From an uncultured Massilia sp. (GTDB lineage Bacteria > Pseudomonadota > Gammaproteobacteria > Burkholderiales > Burkholderiaceae_D), in the NCBI GenBank assembly GCA_913777025.1, contig CAJYQM010000260.1, positions 1-38,974 on the forward strand: a stretch of 38,974 bases of DNA, read 5' to 3'. This document shows, one piece after another, positions 4,085-22,210 of this stretch. Position 1 is the first letter of the stretch. Each line of letters starts with the position of its first letter. The position numbers were made by a program, and so were the translations under genes. The notes beneath the pieces are model-generated. The model was not told where the DNA came from, made no database searches, and saw nothing but the letters and a program-made list of their open reading frames with translations.

Positions 4085-5148
4085 TCTTGGTTGTCCACGT
4101 GATGGGTTGCCGCCCCCTGGGGCGTGGCCACGATCTTTTTCAGGATCGACAGCACCGACACGATCGATTTCTCCAGGCGCATCATGCGCTCGTCCAGCAT
4201 CTCGACGCTGCTGGCGCGGCGGTCGCCGTTGCGCTGGTCGATGGTGCGCAGGCCGCCGGCGTGCAGTTCGCCGTCTAGGCTGGCGCCGGCCACCGGCATG
4301 GCGTCGTCGGCCGGCGTGCCCATGACCTCGGGCACCTTGTATTCTTCGTTGATGTCGCGGATGACGGTGTTGATGTCCTCTTCCGTGAAGGCGTGCAGCT
4401 CTTCCAGGAAGCCCATCAGCAGCACGCGGTCCATCAGCGTGTTGACCTTGCGCGGGATGCCGCCGCTGTAGGCGAAGATCGCGGCATGGGCGCCGTCATC
4501 GAAAGCGGGGTCGCCCTGCCAGCCGACCGTGGCCAGGCGGTGCTCGATGTAGGCGCGGGTTTCCTGCGCATCCATCGGGCCCAGGTGGTAGCTGGCGATC
4601 ACGCGCTGGCGCAGCTGCTGCATGCCGGGGCTGTGCAGGGTGGCGCGGAACTCCGGCTGGCCGAGCAGGAAGGTCTGCAGCAGCGACTTGTCGTCGGTCT
4701 GGAAGTTCGACAGCATGCGCAGCTCTTCGACCGTGCGCGCCGACAGGTTCTGGGCTTCGTCGATGACGAGCAGGGCGCGCTTGCCCTGGTGGTCGACGTC
4801 GCACAGGAAGCGCTCCAGGCGCGTGAGCAAGTCGGTCTTGCTCGCGCCCTCGTAGGGCAGGCCGAAGGCCGACACCACCATCCGCAGCGTGTCGTCCGGA
4901 TCGAGGTGGGTGTTGACGATGTGGGCGGCCACGATCTGGTCCGACGGCAGCCGGTTGAACAGGCTGCGCACCAGCGTGGTCTTGCCCGCGCCGACCTCGC
5001 CGGTGATGACGATGAAGCCTTCGCCCTGCGACAGGCCGTACTCGAGGTAGGCCATGGCGCGCTTGTGTCCCTTGCTACCATAGAAGAAGTGCGGGTCGGG
5101 GCGCAGCTGGAAGGGCTTGGCGGACAGGCCGTAATAGGATTCGTACAT
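4081..5148 (-). CDS. XrtA-associated AAA/ExeA-like ATPase (TIGR03015 type)
   Basis: Cytoplasmic ATPase of 355 residues resembling ExeA/GspA ATPases. The N-terminus MYESYYGLSAKPFQLRPDP is characteristic. Walker A is GEVGAGKTT (residues 50-58) and Walker B is LLVIDEAQN (about 127-134). After the AAA core there is a tail of some 90 residues ending in a putative coiled-coil stretch (SSVEMLDERMMRLEKSIVSVLSILKKI). Its role in the exosortase locus is unproven; an energy-supplying or assembly role in polymer export is inferred from its relatives. It starts 17 bases after the outer-membrane protein gene and overlaps the deacetylase gene by four bases. Confidence 0.94.
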   Translation of the reverse strand: MYESYYGLSAKPFQLRPDPHFFYGSKGHKRAMAYLEYGLSQGEGFIVITGEVGAGKTTLVRSLFNRLPSDQIVAAHIVNTHLDPDDTLRMVVSAFGLPYEGASKTDLLTRLERFLCDVDHQGKRALLVIDEAQNLSARTVEELRMLSNFQTDDKSLLQTFLLGQPEFRATLHSPGMQQLRQRVIASYHLGPMDAQETRAYIEHRLATVGWQGDPAFDDGAHAAIFAYSGGIPRKVNTLMDRVLLMGFLEELHAFTEEDINTVIRDINEEYKVPEVMGTPADDAMPVAGASLDGELHAGGLRTIDQRNGDRRASSVEMLDERMMRLEKSIVSVLSILKKIVATPQGAATHHVDNQE

Positions 5149-5165: not shown

Positions 5166-6749
5166 TTAATACTGGATCGAGAACGTCGCGACCAGCGCGT
5201 TCTCGCTGTAGTTGCCGCCGTTGAGCAGGTACAGGGAGCCGCGCGTGTGGCGCAGCTCGAGGCTGCCCCGGGACCTGGCCGCGAAGCGGTGGTTCATCCC
5301 CAGGCGCGTTTCGTTGTAATTGCTGACGACGTCGTTGGACAGTGAACGGGAACGCGCGACCGACAGGTTGGCGAAGGCGTTGGTGCGCGGTGCCAGCCGG
5401 TAGTCCAGGTTGACGCTGGCGCCGCGCTGGGTGGTGTTGTCGTTCAGCGTGGCCAGTTGCCCCAGCAGCAGGGCGCTGTCGCTCTGCTGCGTCGACAGGG
5501 CGACGCGGTCTTCGTCGTACACCGTGAACGTCAGGTTGCTGCGCGCGCCGCGGAACACCGCCGCGCCCTGCAGGCGCTTGATGCGGATGTAGCGGTTGCT
5601 CAGGTAATTGATGCTGTTGGCCAGCGTCGGCGGCAGGCCGGTGGCGGCGATGTAGGCCTGCACCGCCTGCTGGCGCTGCACCGGGTCCGGGAAGTTCGCG
5701 GCGAACAGGCCGTCGAGCATGGCGGCGGTGTCGACCGAGGACGGCAGCAGGAATTGCGAACGGTTGGTGGTGACCGCGTCGCTGTAGTCGAGGGTCCAGA
5801 CGCTGCGCTGGGTGCGGTAGCTGGAGGCCAGCGAACCGGTCTTGCCGAAGTAGCGGCGGCCGAAGGAGGCTTGCACGCTGGTGCGGGTCGACGGCGTCCA
5901 GATGAAGCCGGCCGACCAGCTGCGCCCGCGCGTGGACTCGCCCAGCGTCGGGTACTCGTACTTGTCGTAGCCGGCATTCGCGGTCAGGCTGAGGCGCCGG
6001 ATCACGCCCCAGCGCAGGCCGACCGTGCTGTTTTCGGAAGACGATTCGCCCCCGACCGTCGGCGCGGAGCTGCCGACCACGTGCTGGTCCAGGTCCTGGT
6101 GGTAGTACGACAGGTTCCAGCCGAAGGTGGTGAAGCGGGTGCCGCTGCTGATGTCGGCCGAACGCGTGCTGGCCATGCTGCTGCCGTAGCCGGCCACGCC
6201 GCTGTCGACCGAGTCGCGCATGTAGCGCAGCGTCATGTCCGCGGTCGAGCCGAAACGGTGGCGCACATAGGGGCTGATGCGCCAGGTGCTGATGTCAGTG
6301 CGGTTGGTGGACGAGAACGTGTTGTTCGATACCGGGCCGAAGGCCGAAATCGCCTGGCGCGAACCGCTGGCGCCGGCGTCGACGAACAGCAGTTCGTCGA
6401 CCACCACCGCCTGCGCGGTGCCGTTGTAGTGGCGCTGGCTGTCCTGCAGGTTGGGCACATCCTTGTCGCTGTAGGCGTACAGGTTCCAGCCGGCATCGGC
6501 ACTCACCTTCAGGCGCGGTCCGTTGCTGCTGACGTTGATGCTCGGCGCGACTTCGCTGATGAAGCTGCCGCGGGTGTCGCCGCCGTTCTGCAGGCCCACG
6601 TTGTCCGAATAGGTCTCGCGCAGGTCGAGCCGCGGCGAGATGCGCCAGTCGGCGCCATGCGAGGCGCCCGACGCCAGCATGGCGGCCAGTGCGAATGGGG
6701 TCAGCTTGAGCGCGGCGCCCAGGCGCGCCGCTCGCGGGTTCTCCGGCAT
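5166..6749 (-). CDS. XrtA-system outer-membrane beta-barrel protein (TIGR03016 type)
   Basis: Predicted exported outer-membrane barrel of 527 residues. After a signal peptide (hydrophobic stretch LTPFALAAMLASGASHGA) comes DWRISPRLDLRETYSDNVGLQ, the usual start of this family, then many alternating aromatic/polar strands and a final aromatic residue (ATFSIQY), as expected for a barrel recognised by the BAM complex. It may be the outer-membrane pore or scaffold for the polysaccharide, but this is unproven. An in-frame ATG at 6770 would give seven more residues, but those codons lie inside the conserved YDYHYG tail of the kinase gene. The ATG at 6749, one base after the kinase stop, is therefore preferred; neither start has a strong ribosome binding site. 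Confidence 0.9.
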   Translation of the reverse strand: MPENPRAARLGAALKLTPFALAAMLASGASHGADWRISPRLDLRETYSDNVGLQNGGDTRGSFISEVAPSINVSSNGPRLKVSADAGWNLYAYSDKDVPNLQDSQRHYNGTAQAVVVDELLFVDAGASGSRQAISAFGPVSNNTFSSTNRTDISTWRISPYVRHRFGSTADMTLRYMRDSVDSGVAGYGSSMASTRSADISSGTRFTTFGWNLSYYHQDLDQHVVGSSAPTVGGESSSENSTVGLRWGVIRRLSLTANAGYDKYEYPTLGESTRGRSWSAGFIWTPSTRTSVQASFGRRYFGKTGSLASSYRTQRSVWTLDYSDAVTTNRSQFLLPSSVDTAAMLDGLFAANFPDPVQRQQAVQAYIAATGLPPTLANSINYLSNRYIRIKRLQGAAVFRGARSNLTFTVYDEDRVALSTQQSDSALLLGQLATLNDNTTQRGASVNLDYRLAPRTNAFANLSVARSRSLSNDVVSNYNETRLGMNHRFAARSRGSLELRHTRGSLYLLNGGNYSENALVATFSIQY

Positions 6750-9651: not shown

Positions 9652-9674
9652 ATGCAAAAGGGGGTGCACGTTTG

Positions 9675-10472
9675 GTGCCTGATCGAAATATCAATATGTC
9701 CGGCCGGCAAATGCGCGGCCGCATGCGGGCCTTGCTGGCCGCCTTCATCGTCGCAGCCGCTCCGGCGCTGCCGGCCGCGGATCTGACCGCGGTGGTCCCC
9801 ACCGTCAAGCGCTCGGTGGTCGGGGTCGGCACCTTCGAACGCACGCGCAGTCCTGCCACGGTTTTCGTCGGCACCGGCTTCGTGGTCGGGGACGGCCTGA
9901 GCGTCATCACGAATTCCCACGTGGTGCCGGCCAGCGTCGATACCGAACGCATGGAGCAGCTCGGCATCGTCATCGCCGATGGCGACATGGTGCGCTTCCG
10001 TCCCGCCGAATTGGTGGCGCGCGACACCGAACACGACCTGGCCTGGCTGCGCCTGTCCGGCACGCCCTTGCCGGCGCTCGAGCTGGCCGATTCGACAGGG
10101 GCACTGGAAGGGCAGGCGCTGGCCTTCACCGGTTTCCCGCTGGGCATGGCACTGGGCCTGCACGCCGCCACCCACCGCGCCACGCTGGCCGCGATCACCC
10201 CGGTCGTCACGCCCTCGCTCAGCTCGAAGAAGCTGGACCCGCGCCAGATCGCACAGCTGCAGCGCTCCTCTTATAACATCTTCCAGCTGGATGCGACCGC
10301 CTATCCGGGCAACAGCGGCAGCCCCTTGTACGATCCCGCCAGCGGCAAGGTGTGGGGCGTGATCAACGCCGTGTTCGTGAAGGGCTTGAAGGAGACGGCG
10401 ATCACCAACCCGAGCGGGATTACCTACGCGGTGCCAGTTAACTACGTCAGGGAATTACTACAACGGAAATAA
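9675..10472 (+). CDS. Trypsin-like serine protease, exported
   Basis: Protein of 265 residues with a signal peptide (RGRMRALLAAFIVAAAPALPA) and a chymotrypsin/DegP-like protease domain. The triad is visible: His82 in TNSHVV, Asp121 in TEHDLAWL, Ser214 in GNSGSPL. There is no PDZ domain, so it is shorter than DegP/HtrA. The GTG at 9675 is chosen because AAAAGGGGG ends ten bases before it; a TTG at 9672 and an ATG at 9696 are alternatives. It lies between the divergent XrtA operon and the Wza-type gene, so a role in maturation or quality control of surface proteins or the export machine is plausible but only inferred. The substrate is unknown. Confidence 0.88.
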   Translation: MPDRNINMSGRQMRGRMRALLAAFIVAAAPALPAADLTAVVPTVKRSVVGVGTFERTRSPATVFVGTGFVVGDGLSVITNSHVVPASVDTERMEQLGIVIADGDMVRFRPAELVARDTEHDLAWLRLSGTPLPALELADSTGALEGQALAFTGFPLGMALGLHAATHRATLAAITPVVTPSLSSKKLDPRQIAQLQRSSYNIFQLDATAYPGNSGSPLYDPASGKVWGVINAVFVKGLKETAITNPSGITYAVPVNYVRELLQRK

Positions 10473-11219: not shown

Positions 11220-11238
11220 CTGTCAGGTTTTTTTACAG
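11220..11238 (+). promoter_or_regulatory. Proposed enhancer (upstream activating) site for the sigma-54 promoter at 11324
   Basis: CTGTC-N5-TTTTTACAG, also readable as the dyad CTGT-N11-ACAG. The same CTGTC-N5-TTTTTACA core occurs at 17977-17995 in the same orientation relative to the other strong sigma-54 promoter (13 of 19 positions identical). The site ends 87 bases before the -24 GG. Its identity as an activator site is inferred from position and conservation; PrsR is the likely candidate protein because PrsK/PrsR with RpoN is known to control PEP-CTERM genes. Confidence 0.5.
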
Positions 11239-11323: not shown

Positions 11324-11338
11324 TGGCACAAGGATTGC
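11324..11338 (+). promoter_or_regulatory. Sigma-54 promoter of the HprK-related operon
   Basis: TGGCAC-N5-TTGCT is a near-perfect match to the RpoN consensus TGGCACG-N4-TTGCW, with GG at 11325-11326 and GC at 11337-11338 spaced by ten bases. Transcription should begin near 11350, about 53 bases before the GTG at 11403. It is the only strong promoter signal seen ahead of the six-gene operon 11403-16790. Confidence 0.85.
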
Positions 11339-11402
11339 TTGATCACGTGGAATCTGGCATTGTGCCTGCTGCCCGACTGTTTTAAAACCGAGTGAGGACC
11401 CC

Positions 11403-12029
11403 GTGGCTACCGAACACCGTCACCCAAGCGAATCTGATCCTGTCGTGCCGAATCCGGATGCGAACGCCGTACCCGCGTCCGCGGCGGCCTCGCTCTCCGA
11501 CAAGGGCAAGGCGCGCCGCCGCTTCGCCAGGGCCGGCGCCGGTGCCACCGGCGTGCTGCTGACGCTGCACAGCCAGCCCGGCATGGCCTGCACCTTTTGC
11601 GGCATCTCGGCTTCGGCGGCGGTGTCGGCGATCGGACAGAACAAAACCATCGGCACGCTCAGCCACCGCCCGGTGGCATCGGTCTGCAACGGTATCCGTC
11701 CGAGCGAATGGTGTGGCCGCACGTGGCCGGCCGGCTGCAAGCCGACCGACACCTTCGGCACGCATTTCAGCTGCAAGATCGGCAGCGCCTACGCCAACGC
11801 GACCTGCAAGGAAATCATGGAAGGCGCCAGCTGCGACCAGTCGCACATGGCCCAGTACATGCTGGCAGCTTACCTGAACGTGCTGTCCGGGCGCGTCAAC
11901 TTCCTGTCCGTCGAGTCGCTGCGCTCGGCCTGGTACGAATGGGTCACCAAGGGCTATTACGCGCCGATGGCCGGCCAACGGTGGTATGCCAACGACATGG
12001 TCACGTACCTGTACGGGACCATGGACTGA
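11403..12029 (+). CDS. Cysteine-rich Tat-like exported protein of unknown function
   Basis: I do not recognise this 208-residue protein. It has a disordered, hydrophilic N-terminus, then a twin-arginine-like motif (RRRFARAG, residues 38-45) and a moderately hydrophobic stretch ending in GMAC, which resembles a Tat signal. Eight cysteines follow at 63, 66, 95, 104, 112, 124, 135 and 144, beginning with a CTFC pair. The C-terminal 60 residues are aromatic-rich without cysteine. The GTG start has AGGA five bases upstream. As first gene under the sigma-54 promoter and four bases before the PqqD-like gene, it is the natural candidate for the protein acted on by the kinase/PqqD/nucleotidyltransferase set; that is an inference. 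A metal- or cofactor-binding periplasmic protein is an alternative. Confidence 0.82.
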   Translation: MATEHRHPSESDPVVPNPDANAVPASAAASLSDKGKARRRFARAGAGATGVLLTLHSQPGMACTFCGISASAAVSAIGQNKTIGTLSHRPVASVCNGIRPSEWCGRTWPAGCKPTDTFGTHFSCKIGSAYANATCKEIMEGASCDQSHMAQYMLAAYLNVLSGRVNFLSVESLRSAWYEWVTKGYYAPMAGQRWYANDMVTYLYGTMD

Positions 12030-12033
12030 CGGC

Positions 12034-12345
12034 GTGACCGCCAGCGAGACATGGTGCCTGCGGCAGGGGCAGACCCTGCAGTACCGGCACTGGGATGGCG
12101 AATACGTGTTGTACAACGACCTTTCCGGCGACACCCACCTGCTGGGCGATGCCGCCATCGAACTGCTGCTGGCCCTGAAGGCTGGTCCCGCCAGCCGGCA
12201 GGCGCTGGCTGCCGTGCTGGAGGCGCAGTTCGAGATCGATCCGCTCGAACTGGACCTGGAAACCGGCGAACTGCTGCGCCACCTGCAACACTTGTATTTC
12301 ATCGAACCCCTCGTCGACACCGGCGTCGAATTACCCGCATGCTGA
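12034..12345 (+). CDS. PqqD-like peptide chaperone of the HPr-rel-A system
   Basis: Small protein of 103 residues with the PqqD/RRE fold, which in known pathways binds a precursor peptide and presents it to modifying enzymes. The core reads LYNDLSGDTHLLGDAAIELLLAL and then helices ending LLRHLQHLYFIEPL, as in the PqqD-related family that accompanies HprK-related kinase A. The frame is open further upstream, but the GTG at 12034, five bases after the previous stop codon, gives the usual length; no clear ribosome binding site is seen, so coupling to the upstream gene is likely. It overlaps the kinase gene by seven bases. Confidence 0.85.
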   Translation: MTASETWCLRQGQTLQYRHWDGEYVLYNDLSGDTHLLGDAAIELLLALKAGPASRQALAAVLEAQFEIDPLELDLETGELLRHLQHLYFIEPLVDTGVELPAC

Positions 12346-13256
12346 CGGTCGCATCGCTCACCCGCGCCCAATTGGCGGCACGCCTGGCCAGCGACGGCCT
12401 GCTGGTGCAGACCGGCGCGTTCGTCAGCCGCATCCGGTCCCCGATCCGCAGCGTCGCCGACGGCATCGCCCTGCTGTATGGCGATTATCCGCTGCACGGC
12501 GCCGGCGGCTTCGCCGACTTCCACGTCGGGCTGCAACCCTCCGGCGGCATGCGCCGCTGGTACCGGCCGCAGGTCAACTTCGACCTCGACGGCCAGGAAC
12601 CGTTCGAACCGCTGCCGGAGGCGCACGCCTTTCCGATGCTGGAATGGGGCCTGAACTGGTGCATCTCGACGCGCGCCCACGCCTGGCTGATGATCCACGC
12701 CGCCGTGGTCGAACGCGACGGCCTGGCGGCAATCCTGCCGGCCCCGCCGGGCTCGGGCAAGAGCACGCTGTGCGCGGCGCTGGTCCACCGCGGCTGGCGC
12801 CTGCTGTCCGACGAGCTGGCGCTGCTGCGCCCGGAAGACGGCCTGCTGGTGCCGGTGCCGCGCCCGGTCAGCCTCAAGAACCGCTCGATCGACGTGATCC
12901 GCGGCTACGTCGCCGATGCGGTGCTCAGCCAGCCGGTCAGCAATACCACCAAGGGCACGGTGGCGCACCTGAAGGCGCCCGCGGACAGCGTCGCCCGCGC
13001 CCACGAGACCGCGCGGCCGGCCTGGATCGTGTTCCCGAAATACGAAGTCGGCGCCGCCACCTCGCTCACGCCGATCCCGCGCGCGCGCGCCTTTTTCCGC
13101 GTCGCCGACAACGCCTTCAATTACAGCCACATGGGCGCGCGCGGCTTCGATACGCTGGCCGGCGCCATCGAGCGCTGCGCCAGCTACGATTTCCGCTACA
13201 GCGACCTGGACGAGGCGATGGCGCTGTTCGCCGCACTGGAGCGGCCGCGCACGTGA
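12339..13256 (+). CDS. HprK-related kinase A
   Basis: Protein of 305 residues related to HPr serine kinase/phosphorylase, though no HPr gene is near. The P-loop is APPGSGKST (residues 135-143), followed by WRLLSDEL (about 153-160), which corresponds to the acidic segment after the P-loop in HprK. An N-terminal part of about 110 residues of unknown role precedes the kinase fold. Members occur with a PqqD-like protein in exosortase-bearing bacteria (TIGR04352), but their substrate is not established. HprK-like kinases of lasso-peptide clusters phosphorylate peptide precursors, so a peptide or protein substrate is plausible. The ATG at 12339 overlaps the upstream gene by seven bases. Confidence 0.92.
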   Translation: MLTVASLTRAQLAARLASDGLLVQTGAFVSRIRSPIRSVADGIALLYGDYPLHGAGGFADFHVGLQPSGGMRRWYRPQVNFDLDGQEPFEPLPEAHAFPMLEWGLNWCISTRAHAWLMIHAAVVERDGLAAILPAPPGSGKSTLCAALVHRGWRLLSDELALLRPEDGLLVPVPRPVSLKNRSIDVIRGYVADAVLSQPVSNTTKGTVAHLKAPADSVARAHETARPAWIVFPKYEVGAATSLTPIPRARAFFRVADNAFNYSHMGARGFDTLAGAIERCASYDFRYSDLDEAMALFAALERPRT

Positions 13257-14341
13257 AGCCGCCTGTCCTGCTCCGCCTGCTGCGCGATCCCGGCCTGGCC
13301 GCCAGCCTGGACTTGTCCGAATGGGACCTGGCGCTGCGCCAGGCCACCAGCGCCAACCTGACCCCGTCGCTGCTGGCGCTGATCGAGGAACGCGGCCTGC
13401 TGGAACAGGTGCCGGCGCAGCCGCGCGCCCAGTTCGAATGGGTGCGCGCCCTGGCCACGCGCCACCGCCAGGCGGTGCGCTTCGAGGTCGACTGCATCCG
13501 TACCGCGCTGGCCCCGGTCGCCGCGCCGCTGCTGCTGCTCAAGGGCGCGGCCTATGCCATGGCCGGGTTGCGCGCCGGGGAAGGGCGCCTGTTCGGCGAC
13601 ATCGACATCCTGGTGCCGAAGGCCCGGCTGGACCAGGTCGAGTCGGCGCTGATGCTGCATGGCTGGATCGGCACCAAGCTCGACGCCTACGACCAGCGCT
13701 ATTTCCGCGAGTGGATGCACGAACTGCCGCCGATGCAGCACGTGCGCCGCGGCAGCAGCATCGACGTGCACCATGCGATCCTGCCGGAAACGGCCCCGGT
13801 GCGCCCGGATCCGGACAAGCTGCGCGCCGGCGCGCGCCCGATTCCCGGCAGCGGCGGCCTGCTGGCCACGCTGTCGCCGTGCGACATGGTGCTGCACAGC
13901 GCCGTGCACCTGTTCTTCGACGGCGAATTCGACAAGGGTTTGCGCGACCTGCTCGACCTGCACCGCCTGCTGGAAGAGTTCGGCCGCGAGCCCGGCTTCT
14001 GGGAGGCGCTGCCGGCGCACGCGCGCGAACTGGAGCTGGCGCGCCCCTTGTTCTATGCGCTGCGCTACAGCCGGCGCCTGCTCGGCACCGCGATCCCGCA
14101 GGCGGTGCTGGATGCGGCCGCAGCGGCGGCACCGCATCCGCTCCTGCGTGCGCTGATGGACGCCTTGTTCGAACGCGCGCTGCTGCCCATGCACGCCAGC
14201 TGCGCAGACGCCTTGACCGGACCGGCGCGCTTCATGCTGTACGTGCGCGGGAACTGGCTGCGCATGCCGCCGCTGATGCTGGCGCGCCACCTCTTCCATA
14301 AAGCCTTCCTATCCAAAAAGGACGCGCCGCAGGCCGCCTGA
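13253..14341 (+). CDS. Nucleotidyltransferase family protein (NTP_transf_5 type)
   Basis: Protein of 362 residues with an N-terminal nucleotidyltransferase fold. Visible motifs are LLLLKGAAYA (about residues 93-102) and GDIDILVP with the metal-binding aspartates 116 and 118. The C-terminal half is helical (HSAVHLFFDGEFDKGLRDLLDLHRLL). The longer open frame starting at 12644 is a shadow of the kinase gene; the GTG at 13253 overlaps the kinase stop in a GTGA arrangement. Proteins of this family accompany HprK-like kinases in other clusters. The nucleotide and acceptor are unknown. Confidence 0.9.
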   Translation: MKPPVLLRLLRDPGLAASLDLSEWDLALRQATSANLTPSLLALIEERGLLEQVPAQPRAQFEWVRALATRHRQAVRFEVDCIRTALAPVAAPLLLLKGAAYAMAGLRAGEGRLFGDIDILVPKARLDQVESALMLHGWIGTKLDAYDQRYFREWMHELPPMQHVRRGSSIDVHHAILPETAPVRPDPDKLRAGARPIPGSGGLLATLSPCDMVLHSAVHLFFDGEFDKGLRDLLDLHRLLEEFGREPGFWEALPAHARELELARPLFYALRYSRRLLGTAIPQAVLDAAAAAAPHPLLRALMDALFERALLPMHASCADALTGPARFMLYVRGNWLRMPPLMLARHLFHKAFLSKKDAPQAA

Positions 14342-14358: not shown

Positions 14359-15969
14359 ATGTCCGACACTTTCGACCTGAATCAAGCCTGGGATGCCATC
14401 GTGATCGGTACCGGCATGGGCGGCGCCACCCTCGGCCATGCGCTGGCGCGCGCCGGGCGCCGCGTGCTGTTCCTGGACAAGGGACCGGCCAGCCCGGACC
14501 TGGTCGGCCGCTACGCCGAAGATGCCTTCCCGCGCGCCGAGGCGCCGCAGCCGGCGCACCGCGCGATCCTGGCGCGCGCCGGCCGCTATGCCGACCAGCT
14601 GGCGGACCGCAGCACGCCGCGCACCCAGCGCTTCATCCCCTTCATCGGCGCCGGCGCCGGCGGTTCCAGCGCGCTGTACGGCATGGCGCTGGAGCGCTTC
14701 TTCCCATCGGATTTCGCCGCCGCCGAACATTACGCGGCCCCGCCGGGCGCCAGCCTGCCGCCGCGCTGGCCGGTGTCGTATGCCGAGCTGGCGCCGTACT
14801 ACGACGCCGCCGAAGCGCTGTACCGCGTGCGCGGCAGCGCCGACCCGCTGCGCGCGGACGGCCCGCGCGAGCACCTGATGGCGCCGCCCTCGCTGACGCC
14901 GGCCGCCATCGAGATGTCGGCGCACCTGGCATCGCGCGGCCTGCACCCGTACCGCCTGCCGCAGGCCTGCGAATTCGTCGACGGCTGCACCGGCTGCCAG
15001 GGCTACCTGTGCCGGCGCGCCTGCAAGAACGATTCGCGCCGCATCTGCCTGGAGCCGGCCCTGCGCGAGCATGGCGCCCAGCTGCTGGACGCCTGCGACG
15101 TGGTGGCGCTCGAGGCCGACCGCGCGCGCGTGACCGGCGTGGTGTGCGAGCGCCACGGCGAACGCATGACCCTGTGCGCGCCGCTCGTGGTGCTGGCGGC
15201 CGGCGCCCTCGAGACCCCGCGCATCCTGCTGGCGTCGCGCTGCGCCGACTGGCCGCAGGGCCTGGCCAACGATTCCGGCCTGGTCGGGCGCTTCCTGATG
15301 CGCCACCACATCGACCTGTACCTGGTCGAACCGAAGCTGGGACGGCCGTTCGACAACCGCCAGAAGGAAATCGCGTTCAACGATTTCTACCTGAAGGATG
15401 GGAACAAGCTCGGTTCGGTGCAATCGTTCGGGCGCCTGCCGCCGGCGGCGACACTGGCGGCCTCGCTGGCCGACGACCTGCGCCAGGGCCCGGTGCCGCT
15501 GGCCGCACCGCTGTTCTCGCTGGCGCGGCCCTTCGTGACGCCGGTGCTGCGCCAGCTGGTCGAGCGCCGCTACATCCTGGCCACCACGCTCGAGGATTTC
15601 CCGTATGCCGACAACCGCGTCGTACCGGGCAAGGACGCGCGGCTGGACATCGAGTACCGCCTGCACCCGGGAGACCGCGAACGCATCGCCGCAATGCGCG
15701 CCGCCATGAAGGACGTGCTGGCGGGCTACGGCTACAAATTGATCAAGCAGGCCGAGAACAACCAGCGCATCGCCCACGCCTGCGGCACCTGCCGCTTCGG
15801 CGACGACCCGGCCACCAGTGTCCTCGACCGCGACAACCGCGCGCATGGCCTGGCCAACCTGTACGTGGTCGACAGCGCCTTCTTCCCGTCGTCCGGCGGT
15901 ACCAATCCGAGCCTGACGATCGCCGCCAACGCCCTGCGCGTGGCGGCGCGCCTGCTGGCGCAAGCCTGA
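14359..15969 (+). CDS. GMC-family FAD-dependent oxidoreductase
   Basis: Flavoprotein of 536 residues. The FAD-binding Rossmann motif is VIGTGMGGATLGHALARAG (residues 16-34) with the acidic LFLDKG strand end near 40. The C-terminal GMC part has HACGTCRFGDDPATSVLDRDNRAHGLANLYVVD and then SSGGTNPSLTIAANALRVA. A cysteine-rich segment (Cys 204, 210, 213, 218, 222, 230) sits in the middle, resembling the C-x2-C clusters in some dehydrogenase-type GMC proteins; whether it binds iron-sulfur is not known. Seventeen bases separate it from the nucleotidyltransferase gene, so it is in the same operon. An alcohol or sugar may be its substrate; nothing narrows this. Confidence 0.9.
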   Translation: MSDTFDLNQAWDAIVIGTGMGGATLGHALARAGRRVLFLDKGPASPDLVGRYAEDAFPRAEAPQPAHRAILARAGRYADQLADRSTPRTQRFIPFIGAGAGGSSALYGMALERFFPSDFAAAEHYAAPPGASLPPRWPVSYAELAPYYDAAEALYRVRGSADPLRADGPREHLMAPPSLTPAAIEMSAHLASRGLHPYRLPQACEFVDGCTGCQGYLCRRACKNDSRRICLEPALREHGAQLLDACDVVALEADRARVTGVVCERHGERMTLCAPLVVLAAGALETPRILLASRCADWPQGLANDSGLVGRFLMRHHIDLYLVEPKLGRPFDNRQKEIAFNDFYLKDGNKLGSVQSFGRLPPAATLAASLADDLRQGPVPLAAPLFSLARPFVTPVLRQLVERRYILATTLEDFPYADNRVVPGKDARLDIEYRLHPGDRERIAAMRAAMKDVLAGYGYKLIKQAENNQRIAHACGTCRFGDDPATSVLDRDNRAHGLANLYVVDSAFFPSSGGTNPSLTIAANALRVAARLLAQA

Positions 15970-16001
15970 CCTTCATTTCACATCCCGACAAGGAGCCAAG
16001 A

Positions 16002-16790
16002 ATGCGGCTTTCCGACATCAAAGGACATTGGGCGCTGGTGACCGGCGCCTCGTCCGGCATCGGCCACGAGTTCGCGGTCCAGCTGGCGCGCGCCGGCGCC
16101 AACCTGGTGCTGGTCGCGCGGCGCGAAGAGCGCCTGCAGGCGCTGGCGCGCACGCTGGAACAGGAGCACGGCATCGCGGCGCGCGTGGTCGCGCTCGACC
16201 TGGCCGGATCCGGCGCCGTGGACAGCCTGCGCGCGCAGCTGGGTGACGCCGGCATCCGCGTACGCCTGCTGGTGAACAATGCGGGCGCCGGACGCTGGGG
16301 CCGCTTCGAAGGCACGCCAGCTGCCGACTATGAACGCATCAACGCGCTGAACACGACGGCACTGGTGGCGCTGTGCCGCGGACTGTTCGACGACCTGGCG
16401 TCGTTCCCGGCCAGCGCCGTGATCAACGTGTCCTCGGCGGCCGCCTACCAGCCGGTGCCCTACATGGCGATGTACGCGGCCAGCAAGGCCTTCGTGCACA
16501 GCTTCAGCCAGGCGCTGCACGGCGAGTGGAAGGCGCGCGGGATCCTGGTCCAGACCCTGGTGCCGGGACCGACCGAGAGCGAATTCGACGACAAGGCCGG
16601 CGCCTACGAGAGCGCCATCACGCAGCGCGACACGCCGCAACAGGTGGTAAGGGCGTCGTTGGCGGGGCTGGACGGCGGGGCGCCGGTGGTGGCGGTGGCA
16701 AAGGGGACGTACAAGCAGCGTTTCTTTGCCGGGCTGTTCCCTCCGGCGATGGTGATCCGGGAAGTCGGGAAGATGTTCAAGCCCAAGTAA
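16002..16790 (+). CDS. Short-chain dehydrogenase/reductase (SDR)
   Basis: Classical SDR of 262 residues. The cofactor motif is VTGASSGIG (residues 13-21), NNAG lies at 92-95, the catalytic serine is in INVSSAAAY (144/145) and the YxxxK pair is Tyr158 and Lys162. The arginines after the second beta strand (LVARREER) suggest NADPH preference. The start has AGGAG (15990-15994) upstream. It is the last gene of the sigma-54-driven operon, 32 bases after the GMC gene, and is followed by a strong terminator. The substrate is unknown. Confidence 0.92.
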   Translation: MRLSDIKGHWALVTGASSGIGHEFAVQLARAGANLVLVARREERLQALARTLEQEHGIAARVVALDLAGSGAVDSLRAQLGDAGIRVRLLVNNAGAGRWGRFEGTPAADYERINALNTTALVALCRGLFDDLASFPASAVINVSSAAAYQPVPYMAMYAASKAFVHSFSQALHGEWKARGILVQTLVPGPTESEFDDKAGAYESAITQRDTPQQVVRASLAGLDGGAPVVAVAKGTYKQRFFAGLFPPAMVIREVGKMFKPK

Positions 16791-16876: not shown

Positions 16877-17809
16877 TTAGGCCTTTTTCGACTTGCGGCG
16901 GGTTGCGCCGACCAGGCCCAGCATGCCCATGCCCAGCAGCATCATGCTGCCCGGTTCCGGCACGTTGGTGAAGGTGTTCGAACCGTCGACCTTGAAGACG
17001 ATGTCGTTGGCGCCGACTTTGTAGTCGCCGAACATGCTGCCGCCGCCCATGTGGAAGCCGGTGGTGTTGGCGGCGTTCGCCGGGTAGTTCAGGGTCGATT
17101 CGAAGTTGATGCCGAACAGCATGTCGGAGATGCCCGACAGGTAGGCGTTGTTGATGAAGTCGCCGTTGGCTGCATCGACGGTCGCGTGCAGGCGAGCCGA
17201 ACCCTGGCCGGTGTTGGTGCCGTTGATCGCGGTGAACTGCGAGGTGGTGCCGTCCTGGACGATGGTCAGCAGGGCGATCATTTCGCCGTCATCGAAGCCG
17301 GTACCATCGGCGGTGTTCGAGTTCGCTGCTGCGTCGTAGTAGATCGCGACCTTGTTGCTGCCGGCGCCCAGGCCGAAGATCGAGGTCGGGTTGCCGCCGA
17401 TGGTGCCCGACGAGGTCACGACTTCATTCAGGCGAGCGACGATGGTGTATTCGAACGAGGTACCCGGGTCTTTCTTGCCGTTCGAGGTGGTGTCCAGGTC
17501 GCGCAGGGCCAGTTGCGGGTCACCGCCGCCGACGCTGGTCAGGTTGGCCTGGTACAGGAACTGGAAGCTCGCGCCGACCGGCAGCTGGGCTTGCGAGTTG
17601 AACGGACCAACGCCGATCGCCACGCCGCTGCCTTGTTGGTTCCAGTCCAGGCTGGTTGCGCCGGACACCAGCACGTCGCCATTGGCGTTTTTCAGGTCGA
17701 AGTTGCTGCCGATACCGTTGTTCGGGACAACTTCAGCGTGAGCGGCGGTGGCGAAAGTCATGCCGATTGCTGCAGCGAGGGGGATCAGTTTGCGAAACGA
17801 AATCTTCAT
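16877..17809 (-). CDS. PEP-CTERM sorting-domain exported protein (PepA-like)
   Basis: Secreted protein of 310 residues, the likely substrate of exosortase A. It has an N-terminal signal peptide (LIPLAAAIGMTFATAAHA) and at the C-terminus the full sorting signal: VPEPGS (283-288), a hydrophobic stretch MMLLGMGMLGLVG and a basic tail RRKSKKA. The body (about 30-280) is Gly/Asn/Thr/Ser-rich and cysteine-free, with FDLKNANGDVLVSGATSLDWN near the start. It resembles the flocculation-associated PEP-CTERM protein PepA of floc-forming betaproteobacteria; that name is a family-level guess. The ribosome binding site GGAG lies eight bases upstream. It has its own sigma-54 promoter (17889-17903), so expression is likely tied to biofilm or floc formation. 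Confidence 0.95.
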   Translation of the reverse strand: MKISFRKLIPLAAAIGMTFATAAHAEVVPNNGIGSNFDLKNANGDVLVSGATSLDWNQQGSGVAIGVGPFNSQAQLPVGASFQFLYQANLTSVGGGDPQLALRDLDTTSNGKKDPGTSFEYTIVARLNEVVTSSGTIGGNPTSIFGLGAGSNKVAIYYDAAANSNTADGTGFDDGEMIALLTIVQDGTTSQFTAINGTNTGQGSARLHATVDAANGDFINNAYLSGISDMLFGINFESTLNYPANAANTTGFHMGGGSMFGDYKVGANDIVFKVDGSNTFTNVPEPGSMMLLGMGMLGLVGATRRKSKKA

Positions 17810-17888
17810 GTTGGCTCCAAAATTATTCGGCGATATTTATTCGGTGTTACAGCCCAGCTTGTCGTTGCGGGCGTATGCCAACTACTAA

Positions 17889-17903
17889 GCAAGGGGTGTG
17901 CCA
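17889..17903 (-). promoter_or_regulatory. Sigma-54 promoter of the PEP-CTERM gene
   Basis: On the minus strand TGGCAC-N5-TTGCT, a near-consensus RpoN site with correct GG-N10-GC spacing. Transcription would start near 17877, giving a leader of about 68 bases before the ATG at 17809. Confidence 0.85.
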
Positions 17904-17976: not shown

Positions 17977-17995
17977 TTGTAAAAATTTTCGACAG
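17977..17995 (-). promoter_or_regulatory. Proposed enhancer site for the PEP-CTERM sigma-54 promoter
   Basis: On the minus strand CTGTC-N5-TTTTTACAA, matching the site at 11220-11238 at 13 of 19 positions. It lies 75 bases before the -24 GG, against 87 for the other copy; the 12-base difference is close to one helical turn. It also lies just after the stop codon of the glycosyltransferase gene at 18000. Confidence 0.5.
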
Positions 17996-19383: not shown

Positions 19384-20454
19384 TTATTTCAACAGCGCTT
19401 CGACCGGCTTGCGCAGCGAGCGCGACTGGGGCGCGGGGCCGGCGCCGAGCCGGCCCATGAAGACCGGGTGGCCGGGACCGCTGCCGACCAGCTTGCGCAG
19501 GCGCGGCTGCAACTGGCGCGCCGCGCCGTGCAGCTTGTCGATTTTCGAAAAGCTCTTGTTGTGCTGCAAGTACCAGGAAAAGATCAGCGGCGTCATTTCC
19601 GGCTGCATCGCCAGGCCCAGCTGGGTGAGCGTCAGCCAGAAGCGCTGCACCGCGCGGCCGGCGGCAACATGGTCCTCGACCGTGGCAGGGGCCTGTTTCG
19701 CGATGATGACGAAGTGGGCGGCGCAGGCCAGGCCCGGGACCAGGTCCATCTGCAGGCGCGGCGCCCAGGTGCCCATCAGGCGGTTCATCGTGGAGAGCCG
19801 GCCCCAGCTGGTCATCGCCCATTTCATCAGGCGCAGCGTGGCCTGGTCGACGCCGAGCGCCTGGTCGGGCACGCGATCGTTGCTGTGGCGCGCGTTCCAG
19901 TGGATGATGCGGCGGTGCACCTCGTAGGCTTCCGGCATCGTCAGGCGCAGCTTGGCATTCGAATACATCAGGCGCGCCGCGTTCAGCTTGCCGCCAAAGC
20001 CATCGATCCAGCGCACCTCGAAGCCGGCGCCCACGGCGGCTTCCAGCGCCTGTTTCTCGTCCGTGCGCAGGGCGCGCGTGCTCATCGGGCGGCGCTGTAC
20101 GCTGCGCGACTGGATCGCGCCGAGCAGGGGGCTGGGCTTGACCTGCACGTCCGGCACGAAGCGCACGTCGAATTCCGGATTCGTGTCGCTGCTGGCCGGG
20201 CGGCGCGCGACGTCGGCGCGCAGGCCCTGGGCGCTGGCGGCGATCGCGATCGTCTCGAGCAGGGCGCCGTGCGAGATCTGGCTGGGACGGCCGGCGAAAT
20301 CGTAGACGCAGTGTTCGCGCGTGTCGCGGCAATGCACGACCAGGTGGTCGGGCGCGGCGATCTCGAAGTGCCAGGCCTGCTCGTTGTCGCCGCTCGGTGC
20401 CCAGCGCGCCAGGTCGAGGATGCGGTACAGCGAGTCGGGAATCGCGGCACTCAT
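19384..20454 (-). CDS. Nitroreductase-like FMN protein
   Basis: Protein of 356 residues of the nitroreductase superfamily. The N-terminus ILDLARWAPSGDNEQAWHFEI is the FMN-binding motif (Arg/Ser/Asn around RWAPSGDN), and LQHNKSFSKIDKLH and other parts fit a divergent member. Its length exceeds simple nitroreductases (about 200 residues), as in MoeY/Rv1355c-like proteins, where a ThiF domain is fused to such a domain. Here the two are separate genes that overlap by four bases (ATGA), which decides the start at 20454. The open frame to 20814 is a shadow. An oxidation or reduction of an acyl amino acid, or of a ThiF-activated product, is possible; the reaction is unknown. Confidence 0.85.
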   Translation of the reverse strand: MSAAIPDSLYRILDLARWAPSGDNEQAWHFEIAAPDHLVVHCRDTREHCVYDFAGRPSQISHGALLETIAIAASAQGLRADVARRPASSDTNPEFDVRFVPDVQVKPSPLLGAIQSRSVQRRPMSTRALRTDEKQALEAAVGAGFEVRWIDGFGGKLNAARLMYSNAKLRLTMPEAYEVHRRIIHWNARHSNDRVPDQALGVDQATLRLMKWAMTSWGRLSTMNRLMGTWAPRLQMDLVPGLACAAHFVIIAKQAPATVEDHVAAGRAVQRFWLTLTQLGLAMQPEMTPLIFSWYLQHNKSFSKIDKLHGAARQLQPRLRKLVGSGPGHPVFMGRLGAGPAPQSRSLRKPVEALLK

Positions 20455-21338
20455 GCCCGCACTTCCTTGCCGGCCAGTTCCTTGGTCATCTGGCGCTTGG
20501 CGACGCTGATCATCAGGCGGTGCAGCAAGTTGCCGTTGCCGCCCGGACGCCAGGTATGGGACAGCTTGTTGCGGTAGGCATCGAACTGGACGCCGTGCGG
20601 CGCGGCCAGCACCTTGCCGCGTCCGAGCAGGATCTTGAGGGCTTCGGTGGCGACGATGCCGGCGCACAGCTGGCAGGCCATGAAGGTCGAGGGACCGCGG
20701 CGCTCGGCAAAATTGACCGCTTCCGGCACCACCAGGTAGGGGCGGTGCAGGCCGGCCGGGGCCAGGCCGACCACGAAACGGATCGCCTTGTCCAGCTCCG
20801 GGAGGTTCCCCCACTGGAAATACTCTTCGAAGGTCATCTGGCCCGGCATGAAGTTCAGCAGGGCCGCGCCCATCCCGAGCGGCGCCGCGGTGGTGGCCGG
20901 GATGCCGAGCTCGGCACAGGCCGCAAACGTTTGCTGACGGGCGTCGAAGGCAAAGAAATCGAGCGCGTCGACGTACAGGTCGACCCCGGCCAGGAATGCC
21001 TTCAGGTTGCCCTTGTTGACGCCTTCGTCGAAGATCTTGATGTCGATCTCGGGATTGATGTCCTTGGCCATGCGCGCCAGCACCTCGGCCTTGGGCTGGC
21101 CGACGGTCGACATCATGGCGCCGACCTGGCGGTTGAAGTTGACGACGTCGAAGCTGTCGAAATCGGCGATGTGGAAGTTGGCCACACCCAGGCGTGCCAG
21201 GGTCAGCAAGTGCACGCCGCCGACCCCGCCGCCGCCGGCAATGGCGACGCGCTTGCCGCGCAGGGTCGATTGTTCTGCCGGCGTCACCCAGCCGATATTG
21301 CGTGAAAACGCTTGTTCATAGCGGAACGGATTGTTCAT
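20451..21338 (-). CDS. ThiF/E1-like adenylyltransferase
   Basis: Protein of 295 residues of the ThiF/MoeB/HesA family, which activates carboxylates (usually protein C-termini or peptides) with ATP. The nucleotide-binding loop AIAGGGGVGG (about residues 32-41), the acidic Asp59 in HIADFDSFD, the NFNRQVG motif (Asn-x-Asn-Arg-Gln, about 67-73) and Lys83 are all present. The usual zinc-binding CxxC pairs are not evident, though CQLCAG occurs late. No ThiS/MoaD-like carrier with a C-terminal GG is encoded nearby, so the substrate may be a small acyl amino acid. It starts 32 bases after the FeeM-like gene. Confidence 0.9.
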   Translation of the reverse strand: MNNPFRYEQAFSRNIGWVTPAEQSTLRGKRVAIAGGGGVGGVHLLTLARLGVANFHIADFDSFDVVNFNRQVGAMMSTVGQPKAEVLARMAKDINPEIDIKIFDEGVNKGNLKAFLAGVDLYVDALDFFAFDARQQTFAACAELGIPATTAAPLGMGAALLNFMPGQMTFEEYFQWGNLPELDKAIRFVVGLAPAGLHRPYLVVPEAVNFAERRGPSTFMACQLCAGIVATEALKILLGRGKVLAAPHGVQFDAYRNKLSHTWRPGGNGNLLHRLMISVAKRQMTKELAGKEVRA

Positions 21339-21370
21339 CGATGCGGAAACGGATTATGGGGATGCCCGCA

Positions 21371-22150
21371 TCATACCGCGTGCTGTTCGTCCATGCGCAT
21401 CAGGCGGTTGCGAATACCCATTTCTTCGCGCGGCGAGAAGAAATACGGATAGAACGAGCGTTCGCTAACCGTATTGTCCGCGCTGAAGGTGCCGCCGAAT
21501 TTCTGGATCTGCTCCGTGACGAAATCCAGGTTCACGCGCAGCAGATAGGCCGGGGCGTCGACCCGCGGATTGATTTTCAAATCGCCTTCCTGCTGAAAAC
21601 CGAGCATGCGTTCGTAAAAACGGCGATGGCGCGGATTGACTTCGATGACGATATCGGTGCACTGGTGGATATCGCGGCCGTAGATCACGGCCAGGTGGAA
21701 CAGGTTGGCCAGCGAGGTTTTCGAGCGGACCGACGGGTCGAACGCCAGCTTGGTGAACTCGCACAGGCGCGCGCCCTTGTTGCGGTGCGCGTCCAGTTCT
21801 TCCTTGAAGATCTGGTCGGCCATCAGGCCGATCGGCGAATCGATGCCGATGGTGAGCGTGCCCACCACTTCGCCTTTGTCGGTTGCGGTGAGGGTGATGC
21901 GGTTCGGGTCGTCAGTCAGTTGGTGCGTGCCGGCATAACCGCGCCAGGCATACATCTTGTTAATCAGCATACTGGCTGAATTACGCCCGTCAGCGGTATC
22001 GGTAAGCCGGATTCCGTACGAATCGTGGTTCACGATAACATCCTCATATTGAGAGGGCGCCATATTATCGCGATCACTGAAAACATGAGCGTCCGATAGG
22101 GATGCAGCCGATTCACCCTCTGGATCCTTGAAATCGTCGAAAGTCGTCAT
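21371..22150 (-). CDS. N-acyl amino acid synthase, FeeM type
   Basis: Protein of 259 residues with a GNAT/autoinducer-synthase-like fold related to FeeM, which makes long-chain N-acyl amino acids (such as N-acyl tyrosine) from acyl-ACP. Visible features are YGIRLTDTADGRNSASMLINKMY (substrate entry), the acyl-site strand region EVVGTLTIGIDSPIGLMAD, ARLCEFTKLAFDP and DIVIEVNPRHRRFYERMLGF. Such synthases are known to be linked with PEP-CTERM/exosortase genes in Gram-negative bacteria. The ATG at 22150 is chosen over one at 22165 because GGGGA precedes it at a good distance. It is followed by ThiF-like, nitroreductase-like and glycosyltransferase genes. Confidence 0.85.
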   Translation of the reverse strand: MTTFDDFKDPEGESAASLSDAHVFSDRDNMAPSQYEDVIVNHDSYGIRLTDTADGRNSASMLINKMYAWRGYAGTHQLTDDPNRITLTATDKGEVVGTLTIGIDSPIGLMADQIFKEELDAHRNKGARLCEFTKLAFDPSVRSKTSLANLFHLAVIYGRDIHQCTDIVIEVNPRHRRFYERMLGFQQEGDLKINPRVDAPAYLLRVNLDFVTEQIQKFGGTFSADNTVSERSFYPYFFSPREEMGIRNRLMRMDEQHAV

Positions 22151-22210
22151 CGCAGGATTCCCCATTTGTAGAAAGCACCCGGAAAAATCGCCCGGGAGCC
22201 AGGTTGACTG

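What the first reader, a model, noticed from the sequence alone, without database searches (positions are those of the whole stretch)
11403..14341. Possible peptide-modification system: cysteine-rich Tat-like protein, PqqD-like chaperone, HprK-like kinase, nucleotidyltransferase
Four tightly linked genes combine a precursor-like exported protein (eight cysteines, twin-arginine-like signal) with a PqqD/RRE-type peptide binder, a kinase related to HprK and a nucleotidyltransferase. RRE, HprK-like kinase and nucleotidyltransferase also occur together in paeninodin-type lasso peptide clusters, where the kinase phosphorylates the precursor. Here there is no lasso cyclase or protease, so a different modification, perhaps phosphorylation or nucleotidylation of a folded exported protein, may be made under sigma-54 control.
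Basis: partly seen in the sequence, partly recalled or inferred. Interest (0 to 1): 0.8.

Follow-up and report, generated by a model that had tools for sequence, protein, structure and literature searches.

The report
Tat-leader peptide-modification cassette with its substrate
Four neighbouring genes look like a dedicated machine that tags one exported protein, probably with phosphate on a serine just behind its export signal, under the same control signals that bacteria use for proteins of their sticky polysaccharide coat.

Summary
The four genes are real. The PqqD-like and kinase genes belong to NCBI's HPr-rel-A system (TIGR04353, TIGR04352), for which I found no published substrate. The upstream "cysteine-rich" gene fits as substrate: in 33 of 33 kinase-positive related genomes a gene with its leader lies beside the kinase (32 directly upstream), against one weak hit in 28 kinase-negative genomes.

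Conserved are a Tat-like leader in nearly all precursors, and S-x-x-x-S plus a C-terminal domain in about 99 of 106; only two cysteines are widely kept. One 74-residue precursor has leader and serines but no domain. The PqqD-like protein is predicted to fold like lasso-peptide leader-binding domains (RREs). Divergent relatives have short precursors with the published RRE-binding motif inside the Tat hydrophobic stretch, and a PqqD-kinase fusion. Upstream lie the box and sigma-54 site of PEP-CTERM genes.

Best reading: an RRE-guided kinase phosphorylates a serine near the leader, the nucleotidyltransferase extends the phosphate, and Tat exports the product: a Gram-negative variant of the Bacillota linear polyphosphorylated peptides. 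A trypsin-like protease often encoded nearby may process it. No chemistry was tested, and the serine site is an inference, because the serines usually travel with the domain.

The parts
9672..10472 (+). Trypsin-like (HtrA/MarP-like) serine protease; possible processing enzyme, uncertain part
   Evidence: PF13365; homologue in 28 of 32 and 53 of 80 cassette loci, and in 11 of 26 loci of the class survey against 0 of 28 loci with divergent kinases or orphan short precursors. In close relatives it is simply syntenic.
11221..11237 (+). PEP-CTERM-regulon enhancer-like box (TGTC-N7-TTTACA, 17 bases), predicted PrsR site
   Evidence: One of two occurrences in the window; a 17-nt motif 1 ending in TTTACA is described upstream of PEP-CTERM genes in PMC1569441 (passages seen).
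11324..11339 (+). sigma-54 (-24/-12) promoter TGGCACAAGGATTGCT, 86 bases after the box
   Evidence: One of two exact matches in the window; site >=9/11 in 78 of 97 upstream regions versus 39 of 485 control windows.
11403..12029 (+). Precursor/substrate gene: 208-aa protein with Tat-like leader, S-x-x-x-S segment and C-terminal helical domain
11511..11588 (+). Tat-like leader (residues 37-62, ARRRF...TLHSQPGMA)
   Evidence: RRx[FLMWI] in 103 of 105 precursors, T54 89%, S57 90%.
11598..11627 (+). Segment C66...S71-x-x-x-S75, predicted modification site behind the leader
   Evidence: S71 and S75 invariant in 79 homologues; S[GASVDT]xxS in 99 of 106 divergent precursors versus about 10% of control windows.
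11670..12026 (+). C-terminal domain (residues 90-208), helical model, no PDB fold match found; shared by about 99 of 106 precursors
12034..12345 (+). PqqD-like RRE (HPr-rel-A system PqqD family peptide chaperone, TIGR04353)
   Evidence: profile and model best match lasso-peptide RREs.
12339..13256 (+). HprK-related kinase A (TIGR04352), Walker A GSGKS, HprK-like H120 and D158-E159
13253..14341 (+). PF14907 nucleotidyltransferase (GDIDIL motif), predicted to extend the phosphate
   Evidence: a homologue in the fetched stretch of 112 of 112 loci.

Best explanation
The four genes form an RRE-guided protein-modification cassette for one dedicated substrate. Shown by sequence and models: the kinase's partner gene with a Tat-like leader; serines close behind that leader; an RRE fold for the PqqD-like protein; and the box plus sigma-54 signature of PEP-CTERM genes. 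Inferred: the RRE binds the hydrophobic part of the Tat signal, where divergent relatives still carry YxxPx[V/L/I], and so both presents the precursor to the kinase and holds it back from export. The HprK-like kinase phosphorylates (perhaps polyphosphorylates) a serine near the leader, in the window Ser71 or Ser75. The PF14907 enzyme adds a sugar or nucleotide to that phosphate. Tat exports the product, and the leader is removed by ordinary signal peptidase I, perhaps helped by the trypsin-like protease often encoded nearby; this would replace the dedicated peptidase and transporter of the Bacillota systems. The product works at the cell surface or in the exopolysaccharide matrix.
For: Partnership: kinase over cut-off in 33 of 61 genomes; leader protein beside it in 33 of 33 (32 directly upstream, one about 1.6 kb downstream), one weak hit in the other 28. 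Within the genus the whole-precursor profile hits exactly the 28 of 37 genomes with the kinase. In 112 loci (32 unnamed, 80 named, partly the same genomes) a leader profile hit one ORF per locus among 11,509; PqqD-like and PF14907 homologues in the stretch of 112 of 112. Class survey: leader in 24 of 27 kinase genomes versus 7 of 247 others. Serines: S71 and S75 invariant in 79 homologues; motif in 99 of 106 divergent precursors, about 10% of control windows; a 74-aa precursor whose part behind ...VAAA is GSACISCNASLI. RRE: best PDB profile and fold matches are TbiB1 and TfuB1. [YW]xxPx[LVIFA] in 11 of 14 short leaders; PqqD-kinase fusion in L248. Analogue: LppK phosphorylates Ser3 behind the LppA leader (PMC13381572, sections 6-8 and 12 seen). 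Control: box and sigma-54 site together in 78 of 97 upstream regions versus 13 of 1071 control windows; PrsR over cut-off in 32 of 33 kinase-positive and 8 of 28 kinase-negative genomes.
Against: No chemistry was observed. The serine segment nearly always travels with the C-terminal domain: both are present in most precursors and both are missing in six (L071, L072, L221, L232, L237, L239); only the 74-aa L230 has the serines without the domain. So the serines may be conserved for the domain's sake. In HPr-rel-A leaders the YxxP motif is degraded: P-x-hydrophobic in 26 of 106, none with an aromatic residue three before the Pro. Six of the 14 short leaders were found with a profile that already held the motif. 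Deleting the NTP transferase of the lpp cluster changed nothing detectable. NCBIfam's Tat model does not hit the window protein. The structure model has low confidence over leader and serines. The box-to-promoter spacing (mean 92) is longer than the published mean of 62.8, and 52 of 78 exceed the published maximum of 92. L072's genome lacks PrsR over cut-off. Loci are related, and the profiles were built partly from loci that they then hit.
Confidence: 0.55

Rival explanations
1. The precursor is the substrate, but the kinase and nucleotidyltransferase act on the folded C-terminal domain (for example its conserved Thr near the C-terminus or a loop), and S-x-x-x-S is kept only as part of that domain.
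For: The domain is shared by about 99 of 106 precursors and goes with the serine segment in all but one. It has highly conserved positions (C95 92%, W108 92%, N159 93%). In paeninodin and pseudomycoidin the phosphate goes on the C-terminal Ser (PMC9266682, passages seen). T206 is 90% or more conserved among close homologues.
Against: L230 keeps the serines without the domain; six precursors of the same system have no such domain; T206 is only 71% conserved across the divergent set.
Confidence: 0.21
2. The PqqD-like protein is mainly a Tat proofreading chaperone and the kinase a regulator: phosphorylation in the cytoplasm controls when the surface protein is exported, and is not kept in the mature product.
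For: Tat-like leader in nearly all precursors, an RRE that could sit on the signal, no LppS-type peptidase or ABC exporter on the window's contig, and regulon-type promoters.
Against: The conserved serines lie behind the leader and would stay in the exported product; a PF14907 homologue was found in the stretch of 112 of 112 loci, and its relative PsmN appears to add hexose to phospho-Ser in pseudomycoidin.
Confidence: 0.15
3. The kinase and nucleotidyltransferase act on the exopolysaccharide or another small molecule; the exported protein is a matrix protein that is only co-transcribed.
For: The locus lies in the XrtA/PEP-CTERM exopolysaccharide gene cluster in the genus.
Against: In L041, L071 and L072 no homologue of the window's exopolysaccharide genes was found within 18 kb; the leader tracks the kinase; RREs bind peptides (PMC13381572).
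Confidence: 0.06

Closest known systems
Linear polyphosphorylated peptides (LPP; lpp genes of Paenibacillus alginolyticus, PMC13381572)
   Same: Precursor with conserved N-terminal leader; discrete RRE; HprK-like kinase; NTP transferase; serine close behind the leader; location in polysaccharide gene clusters.
   Different: LPP has its own signal-peptidase-like LppS, an MsbA-like transporter and the YxxPxVLxHQxIxFETxxS leader, and is stated there to be restricted to the Bacillota. Here the leader is a Tat-like signal, neither a signal peptidase I nor an ABC exporter lies on the window's contig, the precursor is usually a large protein with a shared domain, and the promoter is of the PrsR/sigma-54 type, in Pseudomonadota.
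Paeninodin-type phosphorylated lasso peptides (PadeK, PsmK/PsmN)
   Same: HprK-like kinase and nucleotidyltransferase, RRE; PsmN appears to add hexose to the phospho-Ser of pseudomycoidin (PMC9266682, passages seen).
   Different: No macrolactam cyclase or B2 peptidase seen here; the phosphate site there is the C-terminal Ser of a short peptide.
HPr-rel-A system (NCBIfam TIGR04352 kinase, TIGR04353 PqqD family chaperone)
   Same: The window genes are members by curated cut-off.
   Different: The model names give no substrate or mechanism; this work proposes the precursor, its leader and serine segment, the regulon and divergent short-precursor relatives.
PEP-CTERM/exosortase regulon (PrsK-PrsR-RpoN)
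   Same: Same kind of box and sigma-54 site as PEP-CTERM genes; PrsT and XrtA-system exopolysaccharide genes lie in the window; PrsR is encoded elsewhere in the genome.
   Different: The precursor has no PEP-CTERM tail, and the box-to-promoter spacing is often longer than published.

Membership tests
HPr-rel-A system (TIGR04352/TIGR04353) | Kinase over curated cut-off (200 bits) | tested here: met
   413.4 bits
HPr-rel-A system (TIGR04352/TIGR04353) | PqqD-family partner over cut-off (35 bits) | tested here: met
   57.3 bits
LPP family of Bacillota | Precursor with conserved leader and highly variable C-terminus | tested here: inconclusive
   Leader conserved, but about 99 of 106 share one C-terminal domain; it is absent in seven
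LPP family of Bacillota | Discrete RRE, HprK-like kinase, NTP transferase | tested here: met
LPP family of Bacillota | SpI-like peptidase LppS beside them | tested here: not met
   The only Peptidase_S26 match in the genome (83.5% complete) lies on another contig, C542; flanks of other loci were not searched for it
LPP family of Bacillota | MsbA-like transporter beside them | tested here: not met
   Seven ABC_membrane matches in the genome, none on the window's contig C260; other loci not searched
LPP family of Bacillota | YxxPxVLxHQxIxFETxxS leader motif | tested here: not met
   Window leader is RRRFARAGAGATGVLLTLHSQPGMA; [YWF]xxPx in none of 106 HPr-rel-A leaders
LPP family of Bacillota | Polyphosphorylated Ser near the core N-terminus | not testable with these tools
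   Needs mass spectrometry; conserved serines are there
Paeninodin-type lasso peptides | Macrolactam cyclase and B2 leader peptidase | tested here: not met
   Neither among the window genes annotated; the gene at 794-2059 was not annotated and two others matched nothing
RiPP recognition element (RRE) | PqqD-like winged-helix fold matching leader-bound RREs | tested here: met
   Model pLDDT 91.6; top Foldseek hits 5v1v, 5v1u, 6jx3
RiPP recognition element (RRE) | Binds the precursor leader | not testable with these tools
Tat substrate | Twin-arginine motif with weakly hydrophobic h-region | tested here: inconclusive
   RRx[FLMWI] in 103 of 105, but TIGR01409 does not hit the window protein at E<=0.001 and of 9 further precursors only one short one, below its cut-off
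PEP-CTERM (PrsR/sigma-54) regulon | 17-nt motif 1 followed by a sigma-54 site | tested here: met
   Window: 11221-11237 and 11324-11339, gap 86, published range 32-92. Among relatives 52 of 78 gaps exceed 92
PEP-CTERM protein | C-terminal PEP-CTERM sorting signal | tested here: not met
   No TIGR02595 or PF07589 match in the precursor

The most novel reading that the evidence does not exclude
A Gram-negative class of Tat-exported, RRE-guided phospho(glyco)proteins: the Tat signal doubles as RiPP leader, the RRE doubles as Tat proofreading chaperone, and the phospho-sugar set on serines behind the leader serves to attach the mature protein to the exopolysaccharide made under the same regulon, as a route to the matrix parallel to exosortase/PEP-CTERM.
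Probability: 0.15. Interest if true: 0.93.

Novelty: new variant of a known kind. Interest (0 to 1): 0.73.

Why it matters
HPr-rel-A has model names but, in the searches made here, no published substrate or function. A steady partner protein, a likely modification site and a regulon turn it into a directly testable pathway. If the Tat signal really is the RRE-bound leader, it joins two fields (RiPP leader recognition and Tat quality control) and shows how RiPP-type chemistry can be applied to a large exported protein rather than a small peptide. The link to exopolysaccharide genes, reported also for Bacillota LPP and paeninodin clusters (PMC13381572), points to a shared role in biofilm or capsule.

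Tried and rejected

Paper searches: nothing for HPr-rel-A, HprK-related kinase, TIGR04352/TIGR04353, HprK+PqqD+nucleotidyltransferase, Tat signal+RiPP precursor. Searches (8 papers; 191 papers, 12 listed) gave listings in which I saw no such system; I did not open those papers apart from PMC13381572. All of this covers only the open library.

Limits and dropped rows: alignment A2 held one row read on the wrong strand (L009) and was replaced by A3. Of A4's 23 rows, 9 come from genomes of the 61-genome survey, and others may. L102 (contig start, no RR) was left out of the motif count (106 of 107 representatives); L220 was mis-anchored there, so it counts as lacking the motif although its sequence holds CSVSGMQS, and was left out (105). 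L232 counts as having the motif, but its SAAVS lies at the leader end. L053 has S-L-A-V-S. Two PqqD picks (L075, L076) were out of frame and left out of the PqqD profile. In the class survey PqqD and PF14907 genes were each found in 25 of 26 loci over the cut-off; L236, a short contig, lacks both. Second, weak, unlinked hits: G036 and G005. Upstream-region counts use 97 distinct regions of 112 loci. Of 20 loci with kinases under the cut-off, 13 showed no short precursor. The 8-mer count counts most words twice and is not used.
Full report
What is there. Searches show four same-strand genes: a 208-aa protein with an export-like leader (11403-12029), a 103-aa PqqD-like protein (12034-12345), a 305-aa kinase (12339-13256) and a 362-aa nucleotidyltransferase (13253-14341), the last three overlapping end to start. 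By curated cut-offs the second and third belong to NCBI's HPr-rel-A system, TIGR04353 and TIGR04352; the fourth is PF14907. The first matches no Pfam or NCBIfam model. The kinase keeps HprK's active-site block: His120, the Walker A GSGKS and Asp158-Glu159 line up with HPr kinase 1jb1, but at a weak profile score (E 0.066), no better than a cytidylate kinase (E 0.056; residues). In the genus the block sits in the XrtA/PEP-CTERM exopolysaccharide cluster, next to the export protein TIGR03027, chain-length and tyrosine-kinase genes, and PrsT. That the window comes from the Massilia group is inferred from its relatives. The GMC oxidoreductase and SDR downstream are in only 3 of 32 neighbourhoods.

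Is the upstream gene the partner? In 61 related genomes the kinase exceeds its cut-off in 33. A profile of close precursor homologues hits 31 genomes, and within the genus exactly the 28 of 37 with the kinase. A profile of the leader alone hits all 33 kinase-positive genomes, directly upstream of the kinase in 32 and about 1.6 kb downstream in one (G041); among the 28 others there is one weak hit, in a 458-codon frame. A leader profile run over 11,509 ORFs gave 112 hits at E<0.01, one per locus. PqqD-like and PF14907 homologues were found in the stretch of 112 of 112. These profiles were built in part from sequences of the same loci. Named hosts include Massilia, Duganella, Pseudoduganella, Undibacterium, Noviherbaspirillum, Sulfuricella, Gallionella, Nitrotoga, Accumulibacter and Thiobacillus. 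Across 274 genomes of the class, 27 have the kinase over cut-off. The leader profile hits 24 of those 27 and 7 of the other 247, two of the seven being next to kinases under the cut-off. Looking at the loci, a leader-bearing gene lies directly upstream in 26 of 27, the window included: 25 by profile, L220 by eye; the last locus is cut by a contig end. The counts contain related genomes and are not independent trials.

What is conserved in the partner. Among 106 precursors less than 80% identical, S-[GASVDT]-x-x-S occurs behind the leader in 99, against about 10% of equal-length windows from the rest of the same proteins. RRx[FLMWI] is present in 103 of 105; T54, S57, C66, S71 and S75 are each 89-94% conserved, and so are C95, W108 and N159 in the C-terminal part. 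In 79 closer homologues S71 and S75 are invariant. Mean conservation is 0.61 in the leader, 0.49 in the serine segment and 0.39 in the rest. At first I took the C-terminal part for a variable passenger. A profile test corrected this: 73 of 74 held-out precursors with a GYW-type pattern, and 26 of the 32 without it, share one domain. Seven do not: L071, L072, L221, L232, L237, L239 and L230. The first six also lack a proper S-x-x-x-S behind the leader; by eye each has a Ser two or three residues behind the last leader Ala, where LppA has its modified Ser3 (the cleavage points are my guess). L230 is a 74-residue precursor ending ...VAAAGSACISCNASLI, so it keeps leader and serines without the domain. 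So serines and domain travel together with one exception, and the serine site is an inference. The domain is modelled as helical (blocks of pLDDT 75-91), without a PDB fold match.

The recognition domain. The PqqD-like protein is predicted with pLDDT 91.6. Its best fold matches are lasso-peptide RREs solved with their leaders (5v1v, 5v1u, 6jx3), then PqqD and domains of other RiPP enzymes. A sequence profile gives the same two RREs first, weakly (E 0.015 and 0.022). Loci with HprK-like kinases below the TIGR04352 cut-off are informative: 7 of 20 carry precursors of 56-149 residues with SRRxF-type leaders. Of 14 such leaders, 11 match [Y/W]xxPx[L/V/I/F/A] and all 14 a looser form. In the first eight, found without regard to this motif, it is 6 of 8; the other six came from a profile of those eight. 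This is the RRE-binding motif published for lasso and LPP leaders (PMC13381572, sections 6-8 and 12 seen), here inside the hydrophobic stretch of the Tat-like signal. In HPr-rel-A leaders only P-x-hydrophobic survives, in 26 of 106. In L248 a PqqD domain is fused to the kinase; in L284 an oxygenase domain, a PqqD domain and a weak kinase match lie in one protein.

Control. The window holds two exact TGGCAC-N5-TTGC[AT] sites, upstream of the precursor and, on the other strand, of a PEP-CTERM protein gene (16877-17809), and two TGTC-type boxes ending in TTTACA, upstream of the same two genes. Such a pair was reported upstream of proteobacterial PEP-CTERM genes, with PrsR as predicted activator (PMC1569441, passages seen), and RpoN dependence of one such gene was shown by experiment (PMC9850573, passages seen). 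With up to two mismatches in each motif, both occur upstream of 78 of 97 precursor genes against 13 of 1071 control windows; the strict box alone occurs in 45 of 97 against 9 of 927. The spacing (mean 92, s.d. 8) is longer than the published mean of 62.8; 52 of 78 exceed the published maximum of 92, though the window's own 86 lies inside. PrsR itself exceeds its cut-off in 32 of 33 kinase-positive genomes (not in G041) and in 8 of 28 kinase-negative ones. L071, with no homologue of the window's other genes within 18 kb, has both motifs. So membership in this regulon is likely, also away from the exopolysaccharide cluster.

Processing. The genome's only signal-peptidase-I match and its seven ABC-exporter matches lie on other contigs. 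But a trypsin-like, HtrA-type protease gene lies at 9672-10472. Its homologues are in 28 of 32 and 53 of 80 cassette stretches, and in 11 of 26 of the class survey against 0 of 28 stretches with divergent kinases or orphan short precursors. It may process the exported product; in the genus it could be mere synteny.

How it most likely works. The closest worked example is the lpp cluster of Paenibacillus alginolyticus: RRE, HprK-like kinase, NTP transferase, signal-peptidase-like LppS and a transporter. There LppK puts one to four phosphates on the precursor, with Ser3 behind the leader as the site; deletion of the NTP transferase changed nothing detectable. In pseudomycoidin PsmK phosphorylates and PsmN appears to add hexose to the phospho-Ser (PMC9266682, passages seen). 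By analogy I expect RRE-guided phosphorylation at Ser71 or Ser75, extension by the PF14907 enzyme, then Tat export and cleavage. Partnership, leader, serines, RRE fold and promoter are shown by sequence and model; chemistry, leader binding and Tat route are inferred.

Known or new. It is not an LPP or lasso member: the LPP leader motif, LppS, transporter, cyclase and B2 peptidase are not met in the window. It works like them, and it is an HPr-rel-A member. I found no paper on HPr-rel-A or on a Tat signal as RiPP leader in the open library. I call it a new variant of a known kind.

Noticed in passing
16877-17809 (-), with sites at 17888-17903 and 17978-17994: PEP-CTERM protein near the PepA flocculation family (69.3 bits, below the 80-bit cut-off) with the same kind of box plus sigma-54 promoter as the precursor gene; these two genes carry the only exact sites of both kinds in the window.
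   Followed up: partly
9672-10472 (+): Trypsin-like (HtrA/MarP-like) protease gene whose homologues recur near the cassette: 11 of 26 class-survey loci, 0 of 28 comparison loci. A possible processing protease.
   Followed up: partly
L071, L072, L221, L232, L237, L239: A minor type of precursor without the shared domain and without a proper S-x-x-x-S behind the leader; by eye each has a Ser two or three residues behind the last leader Ala, as in LppA.
   Followed up: no
L244 (G161) 4576-4749 and 6212-6391: Two short Tat-leader precursors (57 and 59 aa) flank one divergent HprK-like kinase and carry repeated HGS/GSR segments; they look like a RiPP family of their own.
   Followed up: partly
L279, L280, L281, L282, L283: Orphan short precursors with the same YxxP-containing Tat-like leader and a Gly-Ser start, without a kinase match within the stretch fetched.
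   Followed up: partly
L248:1559-2803 and L284:2714-4546: Fusions: PqqD domain with HprK-like kinase; and a 2OG-Fe(II) oxygenase domain with a PqqD domain and a weak kinase match in one protein, next to a short Tat-like-leader peptide.
   Followed up: partly
14359-16790: GMC oxidoreductase and short-chain dehydrogenase pair directly downstream, present in only 3 of 32 related neighbourhoods.
   Followed up: partly
19384-22165 (-): Recurring neighbours: Acg-like FMN oxidoreductase, ThiF-like adenylyltransferase (NF006077) and a protein matching part of PRK14852, kept wholly or in part in many related loci; function unknown.
   Followed up: no
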